This document shows, in pieces, positions 41,383 through 48,099 of a stretch of DNA of 64,000 bases (the first letter of the stretch is position 1; each line of letters starts with the position of its first letter). The translations under genes and the position numbers were made by a program. The notes under the pieces are model-generated. The model was not told the origin of the DNA. It was given only the letters and a program-made list of their open reading frames with translations, and made no database searches. Location: positions 434,001 to 498,000 of the forward strand of contig BCIO01000001.1 of the NCBI GenBank assembly GCA_001599975.1, given 5' to 3'. The stretch comes from Cystobasidiopsis lactophilus. Taxonomy: Eukaryota > Basidiomycota > Agaricostilbomycetes > Agaricostilbales > Chionosphaeraceae.

Positions 41383-41967
41383 AGGGCGCCACCATATCAC
41401 CTGTCTTTTTAACGCCTCGATTCCCACCGCTGCCGTCCTATAAAAGTCTTACCTCCACTCATGCTCGCCTCCCAAAAATGGCTATACCTCATCATGGCTG
41501 CCGCGCAACGATCGATTGCCGAGCCAGCACTCAGTGTTCACCCTTTTACCCAGCCTCCGGGCGCCTCACGCGTTAGACCTTTTGGCTTAAGGCCGCTCAA
41601 TTGTAAATTGCATAGCTCTTCTCCTGACCTCTCTCCGCCTCGTGCCATCGCCACTGAGGAACTTCGGCCACACCAGCACTCGGGGGCGAAAATATTTCTA
41701 CCGCGGGCGCCTCGCTTGTCCGCCCGCCACTCGTCGTACCTCCATCGCCACCAAGCCTCGGTGAACCCGGGCGGTCCCATCACATTCTTTTGAACCCATT
41801 CCACTCGTTTTTTATCCCTAACACCATACCGCTGGCCTCGAGAGGTTATCGCAAGCGGCCGTTGTTTACTTTCTGTTTGTCAATCGAAGTTCGACGACAC
41901 AACTTTTTTGCTTGTTTGGCTGCCTCCAAATCGACCAAAGCAACGCACCCACACACGCAGTAACCAG
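41383..41967. promoter_or_regulatory. Upstream region of the MADS-box gene
   Basis: About 585 bases. A TATAAAA-type element lies at 41439-41445. The last 100 bases before ATG 41968 are rich in C, A and T and look like a 5' leader. Confidence 0.4.
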
Positions 41968-43264
41968 ATGGCTGCGTCCTACTTCCCGCTCGGGGCGGGC
42001 GAGGGCAGCTTCAGCGCGGCAGGCGGATCAGGAGGAGGAGGAGGAGGGGGGCCGCCATCCGCAAACACGGACGATCTCACGGCGCCGCCTGGCTCGACCT
42101 GGCAGCCTACAGTGGAGGACTTTACGATGCCTTACACGGGCTCAGACGCCTACCTGGGCGGGCCGGGCGACGCCTACATCGACCCCAGCCAGACGACGAC
42201 CGATCTGCGGGTGCACCAGTACGACCCGATGGCTGACGACCTGGACGACGACGTGGATGCCGACGAAGCGGGCGCTTTGGAGGAGGGCGAGTCCGTGCTC
42301 CGGCTGGGCGGCAAGAGGGGCAGCACCTCGACCGGCAGCTCGCCTCGCAAGCGCAAGTCGGCCTCCGGTCAAAGGCTGCTCTCCGACATCCAGCTGGACG
42401 AGGACGGCAAGGCGATCGGCCGCCGCAAAATCCAGATCGAGTACATCCAGGACAAGAGCCGGCGGCACATCACTTTTACGAAGAGGCGGGCCGGCATCAT
42501 GAAGAAGGTGTGTTTTGTTGTGCCTCTTGAGCTGGCTCTTGCTTTGAAACTTGTCAGCTCATATCGCCTCCAAATTCACAGGCATATGAGCTCTCAACCC
42601 TAACTGGAACTCAAGTGTTGCTGCTGGTCGTCTCCGAAACGGGAACTGTCTACAGTTCGTTGACTCTCCGTCATCTGACTGACTGATCTGATGTCCTCGT
42701 TGGTCATCGAACAGCTTACACTACAAGTAAATTGCAGCCGCTAGTAACAGAGACGGCGGGGAAGAATCTGATTCGAGAGTGTTTGGTGGGTTGGCTTGCC
42801 ACGAAATCCGCGAGCCCCAATCTGATTCGCTTTCCCCGTCTGTTCCACAGGACTCGCAAGTAGGAGATGATGTGGGCAACCAGCCGGAGCACAAGCACGG
42901 CGGCCACGTCGCCCTCAAGACCCGCGTCACCCGCAAGAACTCTAGCCAAAACCTGCGCTCACCCCGGCGGGCCGACCCCCCTCCTCCTCTCCCTCTACAC
43001 ATCCCCAATCCTAACGTCGTTATCCCATCCATGCTCTCGCCGCCCATCTCACCACTTTCGACTGCGCCACCTGGGGGCGGTGGTAGTGGTGCGCCTCAGT
43101 ACATGACGCAGCAGCAACAAGACGAACAGCTCCAGTCCATGTACTACGCCTCCCACCCCGCCGGCCAAGGCCAACCCAGCCCGCTCTACGCCCCTGTCCC
43201 GCCACAGGGCTACTCCCAAGAGGGCTACCCGCAAGAAGGCTACCCGACCGAGAGCTACATCTAA
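41968..43264 (+). CDS. MCM1: SRF/Mcm1-type MADS-box transcription factor
   Basis: Fungal regulator of cell-type, mating and cell-cycle genes. Exon 1 encodes a Gly-rich and acidic N-terminus (SDAYLGGPGDAYIDPS, DDLDDDVDADEAGALEEGES) and the first part of the MADS domain: GRRKIQIEYIQDKSRRHITF then TKRRAGIMKK. The next exon gives AYELSTLTGTQVLLLVVSET, then TYTTSKLQPLVTETAGKNLI and RECL. This is the SAM extension typical of the SRF/Mcm1 class rather than MEF2. The C-terminus is Pro/Gln-rich (QYMTQQQQDEQLQSMYYASH) and ends in a short tandem repeat of GYxxE (GYSQEGYPQEGYPTESYI). Introns of 69-80 bases follow MKK, VY and ECL. About 360 residues. No target sites were assigned. Confidence 0.92.
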
Positions 43265-45404: not shown

Positions 45405-45716
45405 ATGTGCCACTGGGAAATCATCGCGTACAGAGACTGCGGGCATAGCGGTACAAGGCAACTCAAGCTGTGTGGCGGCAAAGACCAGGGCGCATCATGC
45501 CCTCTCCTCACCGATGACGCCGCTACCATCTGGAGAACCGGTCTATGTCCCAACTGCAGGCCTGAAGATGCCGGATATCGTTGTCCTCGAACACATGTAG
45601 GTCCTGCCTCTCGCGGTAGTCTCCCGCTGCCCATTGATTGCATTCAGCACGAGGCTGGCCGACAGTGCTTTTCAACCCCGACTGCCCTCTTGAAGGCTCT
45701 TGATGTGCTGCACTGA
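45405..45716 (+). CDS. Small Cys-rich protein
   Basis: Intronless frame of 103 residues starting MCHWEIIAYRDCGHSGTRQL. Cysteines follow at regular intervals: LKLCGG, GASCPLL, LCPNCRPED, YRCPRTH and CIQHEAGRQC. The pattern C-x2-W-x-I-x2-Y-x-C-G-H resembles a group of short fungal proteins with a zinc-ribbon-like Cys/His layout, but I cannot name it. No signal peptide, so not an apoplastic effector type. Could also be chance. Confidence 0.38.
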   Translation: MCHWEIIAYRDCGHSGTRQLKLCGGKDQGASCPLLTDDAATIWRTGLCPNCRPEDAGYRCPRTHVGPASRGSLPLPIDCIQHEAGRQCFSTPTALLKALDVLH

Positions 45717-46112
45717 GTCAGCTCTTTGGCTTTGTACATAGAGGTGTGCACCAGGCACGTAATACACTCCCGCCAGGGAGTCGCAACTCGAACTTGACTG
45801 CCGTTGCCACCTGCTTCGAATCGGGCTTCAAATTAGGAGGGAGGGAGTAAACGAGTCGCCACAAGATGCTGTTGAAGCACCGCTACCGGCAGCCCCTCCT
45901 AGGCCTTTCCAGCCAAAGTGGCGACGAAAGTTGGCCTACTACCTTGACTGCTTCTTTCCTCTCAAATGTTTACAGTCAACCGAACCACTGCTATTGGCCT
46001 CTCATGGTCATTCAAAAATCGCTGCGGCTGCCGGGGGGACCTTTGGCAGCCTTGGAAAGGGCACACAGCCGATTTCTCTCCCCACCGCTCGCGCTCCCGG
46101 TCCTATCAAGAC

Positions 46113-46118
46113 TATATA
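46113..46118 (+). promoter_or_regulatory. TATA-like box upstream of the repeat-peptide gene
   Basis: TATATA within ACTATATAGA, about 215 bases before ATG 46332. The intervening leader becomes pyrimidine-rich at 46245-46280 and then CACCACACACCCGCA directly before the ATG, a good leader context. Confidence 0.4.
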
Positions 46119-46331
46119 GAGCTTCATTAGACCCTCTGAAGCCTAAATGACCTTCGGACAGTCTCTGGCGGGCGAAAAGTTCTGCGTTTGGCAAGGAAAG
46201 CTTATTCGGATAGAGTTGTCCTTTGGCTGTGACCCGCTTCTGCTCTGTCTCCCTGTCTCCTTCCACGAACAATTCCTTTGATAGGAGTGTCGTCGTCTGA
46301 CTCTGATACCCTTGAGCACCACACACCCGCA

Positions 46332-47025
46332 ATGCCTCCCATTACCGATTGCTCGCTCGGCGCCACTTGCGCTGGCAACTTGGTGGGTTTGCTTTCCATC
46401 TTCCTGACCCAAGTCCAGACTCATGCTACTACAGATGGCGCGCAACCTTGCTGTCGCCGATGGTGGTCCTATTGGCCCAGGCAAGATGGTCGGCCGCTCC
46501 ATCGAGCCCGAGGTCGTGCTGCGCAGGTCGCTCGTTGACGAGATCGCCGAGTCAGGTGAGCAATACATTTCCATCTCTCTAAATGAGCCTTTTGTAAACC
46601 AGAGAGCTCGCGGACAGTAATGAAACGCGATAACGAAGCCGATCATGATTTCCAGTGGCTTTATTCTGAAGGCGACGACTCGGGTAGGTCTCCATTACTT
46701 CGTGTCATCTTTTTTTGCCTCATAGATTTGGGGCAGGCCTTGATGAGCGATCAAGTGTCGAGAAGAGAGACGGTGGCGACGATCTGGAATTTCAGTGGTT
46801 GATAAAAGATGGTGAGCGCCAACTTCAATTGTGTGGCACGAGCTCATCGAGTCTTTAATCTATCCAGACGCCGAGAAGCGCGGCATCAAGAAGCGCGCTG
46901 ATGTCGTAGAAGTAGAGAAGCGAACGGACAACTCTGACTTGGACTTCAAGTGGCTCGGTAAGCCATTTTCCAACCTCATAATGCATCCCTAACCGGACCT
47001 CACCTCCTTTACAGCCGAGGACTAA
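46332..47025 (+). CDS. Kex2-site multi-copy peptide precursor
   Basis: Six exons, all GT-AG with consistent phases: 46332-46382, 46435-46555, 46603-46683, 46737-46811, 46868-46957 and 47015-47025, 142 residues. Exons 3, 4 and 5 are each bounded by phase-1 introns and each hold one repeat. The repeats are KR-DNEADHDFQWLYSEG, KR-DGGDDLEFQWLIKD and KR-TDNSDLDFKWLAED, the last ending at the stop. The shared core is D-[HL]-[DE]-F-[QK]-W-L. Extra dibasic sites occur (VLRR-SLVDE, AEKR-GIKKR, VEVEKR). This is the layout of fungal precursors processed by the Golgi protease Kex2 (alpha-factor and other Kex2-processed repeat proteins). The N-terminus MPPITDCSLGATCAGNL-MARNLAVADGG is not an obvious signal peptide, so the secretion route or the true first exon is uncertain. 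An alternative acceptor for intron 3 (after CATAG, 46726) shifts frame and loses the last two repeats. Confidence 0.65.
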
Positions 47026-47263
47026 CCAGGATCACCACGCAAGCTAACATATCAGTCTCAGCACAGGGGCAAGAGGCAAGAGGACGAGATGTCGTCACTG
47101 ATTGACTTCTTGGGACAGACCACACTCGCGCATAGCATTTGAGCTTCAACTTGTACTATTATACCTTTGTTCGTCGACTGAAACCACATATCTGGAAAAC
47201 CTCTCCAAAAGGTCGGCGGTTTTCGAGGCCTGACCTTTTGCCACCATCGAGTCTAAATCCACA

Positions 47264-48099
47264 ATGCTTTGCCTCACCTGCGCAGGCGAGATTGTCGAGA
47301 AGCCATCTGAGAAGCCAATACCCGTGTTCAGAACGACCTGCTGCTCGAGGCCAATCTGCAGCCCTTGCCTCTCGAAACGCCCATCCCTGAAAAGCTATTG
47401 TGTCTTCTGTCAAACCGCCACGGACGCGTTTACAAACGCATCTTCAAGCTCGAAATCAATACCGGACGACAACCAATTCGTCATCGGCGGCTCTGACGAC
47501 GAAGCCGAGGAAGATCTTCCGCCAGCGTACACCGACACTTTTGCGCACTCCAAACCGATAGCGCCTGTAGAGAAGCCTAAAGATGGCAGCGATCCAAAGA
47601 TTCATTGTGAGCATGCTCGATGTCGAAGACAGAGGCAATTGGGCTCAAGGAGCGCCGACCAGACATCAAGCCCGAAGAGACCTTGACCGGCATCGCGATG
47701 AGCTATAACATCAAGCCTCGGGCTTTGGTACTTCTCAACAAGCTCCCTGTAGCCATTTTGACGACGCAGCCCTCTCTACTCCATACCCGGCCGTTCCTGC
47801 TGTTGCCGCCCGGCGTCACCTCGCGGTCGCCCGATCCGCTGCGCGACGAAGAGGCGGAGCGCAAGAGGCTGTTGGTTGTTCAATTTCAAAAGCAGACCAA
47901 GTGCACTGAGCAAAAGGTGGCAGAGATCTACCTGAATGAGGTGTTTCGCAAGAGGGAGCAAGCCGGGCCCTCTGACCTGACGAGAGGAGGGGAGCTGGAG
48001 GAGGCCATGCAAGCTTACCGGGACGATTTGAGTTTCGAAGAACAGTCGGGCTCAAAGGGGAAGTGGACAGGCAAGCGCGTAGAGCGGCGCCGGTTTTGA
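47264..48099 (+). CDS. LysM-domain protein with N-terminal Cys motif
   Basis: Starts MLCLTCAGEIVEKP at 47264. The first ~45 residues hold CxxC pairs (LCLTC, TCCSRPICSPC, YCVFC) like a small zinc finger. An acidic linker (GGSDDEAEEDLPPAYTDTF) follows. An intron, probably from 47607 to 47660, joins PKIH to YIKPEETLTGIAMSYNIKPR, a LysM motif, with LVLLNKLP closing it. The C-terminus is charged and helical (EEAERKRLLVVQFQKQTKCT, KVAEIYLNEVF) and ends KRVERRRF. Intracellular LysM proteins of this Cys-LysM type occur in fungi and are not chitin-binding effectors; no signal peptide is present. Converges with Trm1 (86-base gap). Confidence 0.78.

What the first reader, a model, noticed from the sequence alone, without database searches (positions are those of the whole stretch)
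46332..47025. Kex2-type multi-copy peptide precursor with one repeat per exon
Seen: three exons (46603-46683, 46737-46811, 46868-46957) share the phase-1/phase-1 layout and each encodes a segment after Lys-Arg with the core D-x-[DE]-F-[QK]-W-L. Known: fungal peptide pheromones and other Kex2-processed repeat proteins carry near-identical peptides separated by KR sites. Inferred: three related 12-20 residue peptides are released. Exon duplication at codon-phase borders would allow easy gain or loss of copies. I know of no described peptide with this core.
Basis: partly seen in the sequence, partly recalled or inferred. Interest (0 to 1): 0.85.

Follow-up and report, generated by a model that had tools for sequence, protein, structure and literature searches.

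The report
Fungal peptide precursor, one peptide per exon
A small fungal gene carries three related short peptide units, each on its own exon and each behind a likely protease cutting site; it looks like the precursor of an undescribed peptide, but the signal that would send it out of the cell was not found.

Summary
Exons 46603-46683, 46737-46811 and 46868-46957 (81, 75, 90 nt, all phase 1-1) each encode one unit KR-x4-D-[HL]-[DE]-F-[QK]-W-L, with exactly seven residues between KR and F. Synonymous sites between units are saturated while the core is kept. All six dibasic sites have Val, Ala or Ile at P4. The genome has a kexin; no second copy of the gene was found.

The best gene model (142 aa) has no signal peptide, and the alternative 5' models listed give no convincing one. 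Intron 1 fits the splice profile, yet read in frame it is open and strongly hydrophobic. Secretion, hence Kex2 cutting, is inferred. The peptides between KR sites are 27, 17 and 14 residues, not 12-20.

It works most like a Kex2-processed repeat protein (KEP), with the exon layout of beetle Capa neuropeptide genes; lacking a signal peptide, it is not filed as a KEP. Published KEP surveys would probably miss it. Fungal relatives could not be searched here.

The parts
46113..46119 (+). TATA-like box TATATAG, 219 bases before the ATG
   Evidence: the only TATAWAD match in 45721-46332; 8 matches on the + strand of the whole window
46332..46382 (+). exon 1, MPPITDCSLGATCAGNL; weak coding support
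46383..46434 (+). intron 1 (52 nt, GTGGGT...CTGAC...TACAG); in the frame of exon 1 it is open and reads VGLLSIFLTQVQTHATT, signal-like
46435..46555 (+). exon 2, pro-region, ends in phase 1; dibasic site VVLRR
   Evidence: 16.0 bits in frame, other frames -8.9 and -7.5
46603..46683 (+). exon 3, unit 1: TVM-KR-DNEADHDFQWL-YSEGDDS
46737..46811 (+). exon 4, unit 2: SVE-KR-DGGDDLEFQWL-IKD
46868..46957 (+). exon 5, unit 3: AEKR-GIKKR-ADVVEVE-KR-TDNSDLDFKWL
47015..47025 (+). exon 6, last residues AED and stop

Best explanation
A precursor that works like a Kex2-processed repeat protein. Shown: three diverged copies of an exon, each carrying a dibasic KR followed at fixed distance by the acidic-aromatic core D-[HL]-[DE]-F-[QK]-W-L, kept at protein level after synonymous sites saturated; a kexin gene in the same genome. 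Inferred: the precursor enters the secretory pathway, kexin cuts after KR, a carboxypeptidase trims the KR, and three acidic peptides of 27, 17 and 14 residues with a common 11-residue amino-terminal part ending in F-x-W-L are released and act outside the cell, most likely as a signal. Because each unit sits on a symmetric phase-1 exon, exon duplication or skipping changes copy number without shifting the frame.
For: Exon phases and open frame; pS above 1 with pN 0.28-0.33 over all 13 codons, and 0.05-0.15 on eight codons that I picked as conserved after seeing them. Five or more KR arose in 9 of 100,000 shuffles of the protein; six or more dibasic sites in 61 of 100,000; six with A, V, I, L or M at P4 in 0 of 100,000 (the observed P4 are V, V, V, A, I, V; three of the sites share descent by exon duplication, so they are not independent; that Kex2 favours aliphatic P4 is recalled, and the one paper search for it, did not help). 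KR is kept with three different codon pairs, AAACGC, AAGAGA, AAGCGA. Only two places in 264 kb have five [AVIL]xKR words within 520 nt: this locus and one in L032, whose five words are spread over three frames with stops (at this locus five of the words belong to the gene and three further ones are out of frame or outside it). Kexin on C4: P domain found by Pfam, ORF pieces that by eye cover signal-like start, catalytic part, P domain, membrane span and tail; two pieces match yeast kexin in the PDB at 5.9e-9 and 1.4e-82, the middle piece was not searched.
Against: No signal peptide in the best model (hydropathy 1.23). Of 5 models none reaches 2.2; of 14 (12 printed) two reach 2.24, by an 822-nt intron from an ATG inside the upstream ORF 45405-45716 and upstream of the TATA-like box. 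Models that keep the hydrophobic stretch of intron 1 exist only with poor or non-GT donors or a 22-nt intron. Judged by hydropathy only, as SignalP was not available. The third unit has no KR behind it. [quoted passage not shown] No transcript, peptide or orthologue evidence.
Confidence: 0.58

Rival explanations
1. A cytosolic or nuclear disordered protein with three copies of an acidic-aromatic short linear motif, for instance an Atg8-binding (AIM/LIR) motif, acid then F-x-x-L, or an acidic activation motif; KR is part of the linear motif or a nuclear-localisation feature.
For: The best gene model has no signal peptide. The core has the bare shape acid-F-x-x-L in all three copies.
Against: Does not explain six dibasic sites that all have V, A or I at P4 nor KR kept at exactly seven residues. 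W at the third core position does not fit the stricter LIR pattern as I recall it. No known domain accompanies the motif.
Confidence: 0.25
2. A peptide precursor that leaves the cell without a classical signal peptide, as SecretomeP suggested for the hybrid-type pheromone precursor HPP1, and is not cut by Kex2 in the Golgi.
For: HPP1 has repeats, Kex2 sites and no predicted signal sequence (PMC3068285, passages); the gene here has the same combination.
Against: No CAAX end, which HPP1 has. Conserved KR would then be unexplained.
Confidence: 0.1
3. Not a gene, or a decayed one: the match is a chance of reading frames and splice sites chosen by eye.
For: Exons 1 and 6 score weakly; introns 2 and 3 score below all 29 introns from elsewhere; the antisense of the joined frame also scores +22.4 bits in one frame.
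Against: Joined frame +36.5 or +40.4 bits against -45.7 to -77.1 in the other two frames; codon-level conservation between units; introns 1, 4 and 5 score inside the range of the 29 others.
Confidence: 0.06

Closest known systems
Kex2-processed repeat proteins (KEPs; PMC6339444, PMC7329392, PMC9769878)
   Same: Small protein with repeated peptides set off by KR, conserved cores and variable spacers; kexin in the genome.
   Different: No signal peptide found. Only two units lie between KR sites and the third ends the protein, so both surveys' stated filters (three like fragments besides the C-terminal one; three repeats between sites) would probably drop it even with a signal peptide (my inference). 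One unit per exon: the words exon and intron do not occur in the text of PMC7329392; in PMC9769878 exon does not occur and intron once, in a cloning method; PMC6339444 was not searched for them.
Beetle Capa/periviscerokinin genes (PMC6585902, section 48 read)
   Different: Animal gene with a signal-peptide exon and known peptides; no sequence relation claimed.
Ascomycete alpha-type pheromone precursors
   Same: Repeats behind Kex2 sites.
   Different: No Ste13 XA/XP signature, no cysteines in the units, no Ste2 receptor found (search in which no control rang).
HPP1 of Trichoderma reesei (PMC3068285, passages)
   Same: Three repeats, dibasic sites, no predicted signal sequence.
   Different: No CAAX motif here.
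Dikaritins (ustiloxin type)
   Same: KR-delimited repeats.
   Different: No UstYa found in the genome (search in which nothing rang anywhere) or among 10 neighbouring ORFs tested.

Membership tests
Kex2-processed repeat protein (KEP) | N-terminal signal peptide | tested here: not met
   Best hydropathy of the spliced N-terminus 1.23 over 9 residues; 0 of 5 models reach 2.2; 2 of 14 reach 2.24, through an 822-nt intron that I find unconvincing (12 of 14 printed). SignalP not available; intron 1 read through would be signal-like but the frame then ends before the units.
Kex2-processed repeat protein (KEP) | Dibasic KR/RR/KK sites next to the repeats | tested here: met
   Five KR and one RR, P4 V, A or I in 6 of 6.
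Kex2-processed repeat protein (KEP) | At least three repeats between sites | tested here: inconclusive
   Three units, but the third follows the last KR and ends the protein.
Kex2-processed repeat protein (KEP) | Kexin in the genome | tested here: met
Kex2-processed repeat protein (KEP) | Peptides actually released | not testable with these tools
   needs peptidomics
Alpha-type pheromone precursor | Ste13 XA/XP dipeptides after the Kex2 site | tested here: not met
   KR is followed by DN, DG, GI, AD, TD and RR by SL
a-type or hybrid-type pheromone precursor | C-terminal CAAX | tested here: not met
   protein ends FKWLAED
Dikaritin precursor | UstYa/DUF3328 gene nearby | tested here: inconclusive
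   none found, but the search rang nowhere; 10 nearby ORFs without it
Atg8-interacting (AIM/LIR) protein | Acid-[FWY]-x-x-[LIV] in a cytosolic disordered region | tested here: inconclusive
   bare core shape present in 3 of 3 units; the motif definition is recalled; binding not testable

The most novel reading that the evidence does not exclude
A new family of fungal secreted peptide signals with the core D-x-[DE]-F-[QK]-W-L, built like an animal neuropeptide gene: one peptide per symmetric phase-1 exon, so that exon duplication and exon skipping set the number and mixture of peptides. Such precursors, with few and diverged units spread over exons, would have escaped the published surveys.
Probability: 0.3. 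Interest if true: 0.75.

Novelty: new variant of a known kind. Interest (0 to 1): 0.5.

Why it matters
If the precursor is secreted and cut, it adds an undescribed peptide to a fungus and shows there the exon-per-peptide layout described for beetle neuropeptide genes. It would also mean that surveys asking for three or more near-identical repeats between Kex2 sites miss precursors with few, diverged units.

Tried and rejected
Paralogues in the own genome: none beyond the gene itself for the repeat region (its three exons, max E 10) or exon 2; that tool scores only its best candidates. Pfam and NCBIfam: no family at E 10. PDB: one hit, k-cTRP5, E 2.7e-6 with 0 passing stretches, which I take for a match of repeat composition. 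Viral contigs: 13 pattern matches, none confirmed; prokaryote genomes were not searched. Pheromone response element ACAAAGGGA (recalled) with up to 1 mismatch: 16 in the window, 14.03 expected, none between 29832 and 47162, so none in the promoter. Tandem repeats at DNA level: only a 7-base unit at 47068-47083. CAAX-ending single-exon ORFs in the two 10-kb stretches around STE3: none. Naming the organism: 5.8S rRNA not found, a paper search on genome size gave 0; no Ste2 (no control rang) and two STE3 places, one with RPL18A, SNARE and ASF1 pieces within 10 kb, suggest a basidiomycete but do not show it. Antisense ORF 46143-46694: -7.3 bits. A first splice training set was too noisy and was replaced by one limited to 40-75 nt that requires a branch-point motif and a GTRNG donor, so lengths, donor and branch scores are partly circular, and introns 2-5 of this gene were added to it. 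Literature: five searches for the motif or for exon-wise fungal precursors showed no such case in the listings; of the KEP papers I read sections of PMC6339444 (4, first part of 12, 24), section 13 and passages of PMC7329392 and passages of PMC9769878. The library lacks most subscription journals, and supplementary tables were not readable here.

Full report
What is there. The window lies at C1:434001-498000 of a 22.1 Mb genome in 8 contigs. Exons 3, 4 and 5 are 81, 75 and 90 nt, each entered and left in phase 1, so any of them can be gained, lost or skipped without a frame shift. Each carries one unit: KR-DNEADHDFQWL, KR-DGGDDLEFQWL, KR-TDNSDLDFKWL. The distance from KR to F is seven residues in all three.

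Is it more than chance. The core pattern is no commoner in the genome than its reversed control (14 against 14), but 3 of the 14 matches lie here within 309 bases. Of the 11 others none has KR seven residues before F; L011 has KR twelve and L014 RR eleven residues before it. Between the units 16 to 18 of 39 bases differ; synonymous sites are saturated (pS above 1) while pN is 0.28-0.33 over all 13 codons and 0.05-0.15 over the eight codons that I picked as conserved after seeing them. Simulated neutral change kept as many residues in 2, 34 and 27 of 20,000 runs. The introns around the units are not alike (five of six pairs at shuffled level, one reached by 22 of 300 shuffles), so the duplications are old or the introns evolve fast. 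The joined frame scores +40.4 or +36.5 bits against negative values in the other two frames; against this, the antisense of the joined frame scores +22.4 in one frame, exons 1 and 6 have little support of their own, and introns 2 and 3 have lower splice scores than all 29 introns from elsewhere in the training set.

Cutting sites. There are five KR and one RR. Their P4 residues are V, V, V, A, I and V. Five or more KR arose in 9 of 100,000 shuffles, and six dibasic sites all with A, V, I, L or M at P4 in 0 of 100,000. Three of these sites descend from one by exon duplication, so the test overstates the case, but KR is kept with three different codon pairs, which points to selection on the dipeptide itself. 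The genome has a kexin that looks complete by eye in ORF pieces: signal-like start, catalytic part, P domain, membrane span, long tail; two pieces match yeast kexin in the PDB at 5.9e-9 and 1.4e-82. A DPPIV_N (Ste13-like) gene exists on C3, but none of the six dibasic sites is followed by XA or XP, so that step is not expected.

The weak point. Published surveys of Kex2-processed repeat proteins start from a signal peptide (PMC7329392 section 13; PMC6339444 section 24). The spliced protein here begins MPPITDCSLGATCAGNLMARNLAVADGG, with a best 9-residue hydropathy of 1.23. One search (introns up to 159 nt) gave 5 models, none reaching 2.2. One search (any length, fair splice sites) gave 14, of which 12 were printed; two reach 2.24 through an 822-nt intron 45597-46418, from ATGs that lie inside the upstream ORF 45405-45716 and upstream of the TATA-like box. 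I find these unconvincing but they are not excluded. Intron 1 looks like a normal intron of this genome: GTGGGT, CTGAC, TACAG, 52 nt, score 15.6 where the 29 introns from elsewhere score 12.8 to 18.8. Yet, read on in the frame of exon 1, it is open, scores +2.9 bits for coding and spells VGLLSIFLTQVQTHATT with hydropathy 2.83; of 87 intron readings in the training set 2 reach that value and 0 do so while open. Read through, however, the frame ends before the units (ORF 46233-46538), and models that keep the stretch and rejoin the frame need poor or non-GT donors or a 22-nt intron. So either the protein has no signal peptide, or the true 5' structure is not what the assembly and the splice rules give. 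I cannot decide this without transcripts. Signal peptides were judged by hydropathy only.

What it most likely does. I think it most likely that the gene makes a secreted precursor cut by kexin into acidic peptides of 27, 17 and 14 residues that share an 11-residue start ending in F-x-W-L, and that these act as an extracellular signal. Shown are the units, the KR conservation, the exon layout and the presence of kexin. Entry into the secretory pathway, cutting and function are inferred. The main rival is a cytosolic protein with three acidic-aromatic binding motifs; it explains the missing signal peptide but not the dibasic sites. HPP1 of Trichoderma reesei shows that dibasic sites in a repeat precursor without a predicted signal sequence can be dispensable (PMC3068285, passages).

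Comparison. By way of working it is nearest to Kex2-processed repeat proteins; because the signal-peptide test was not met I do not file it as one. By gene layout it is nearest to the Capa genes of beetles, whose coding exons can all use phase 1 introns and are duplicated by exon (PMC6585902, section 48 read; passages). The SP7 effectors of Rhizophagus, another fungal repeat family, have a conserved intron before the first repeat (PMC11333574, passages). In the two KEP papers where I searched for the words, exon does not occur in either, and intron occurs only once, in a cloning method of PMC9769878. A full-text search for FQWL with KEX2 and fungi gave no paper. Both surveys' filters would probably drop this protein even with a signal peptide, because only two units lie between KR sites (inference).

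Limits. No fungal genome collection was searchable, so conservation in relatives, the strongest test, is open.

Noticed in passing
46383-46434: Intron 1 in the frame of exon 1 is open and reads like a signal peptide (VGLLSIFLTQVQTHA), although its splice signals are normal; the two readings conflict.
   Followed up: partly
45405-45716: Small ORF beginning MCHWEIIAYRDCGHS, with several cysteines, no Pfam family at E 0.01.
   Followed up: no
46143-46694 minus strand: 183-aa open frame antisense to exons 1-3; scores -7.3 bits for coding.
   Followed up: partly
L021, L023, L024 (C4:1994434-1995499) and L022 (C1:2329659-2330000): Two STE3-type receptor places on different contigs; the C4 one lies in a 10-kb stretch with RPL18A, SNARE and ASF1 pieces. 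No single-exon CAAX pheromone ORF found in the 10 kb around either.
   Followed up: partly
41794-42603: Start of a MADS-box (SRF-type) gene upstream.
   Followed up: no
47611-48099: ORF with a sub-threshold LysM match (18.5 bits, cut-off 20.9).
   Followed up: no
L025 8597, L030 1438, L031 2352-2453, L044 4689 and 4863: Scattered ambiguous bases in the assembly; 5.8S rRNA not found in it.
   Followed up: no
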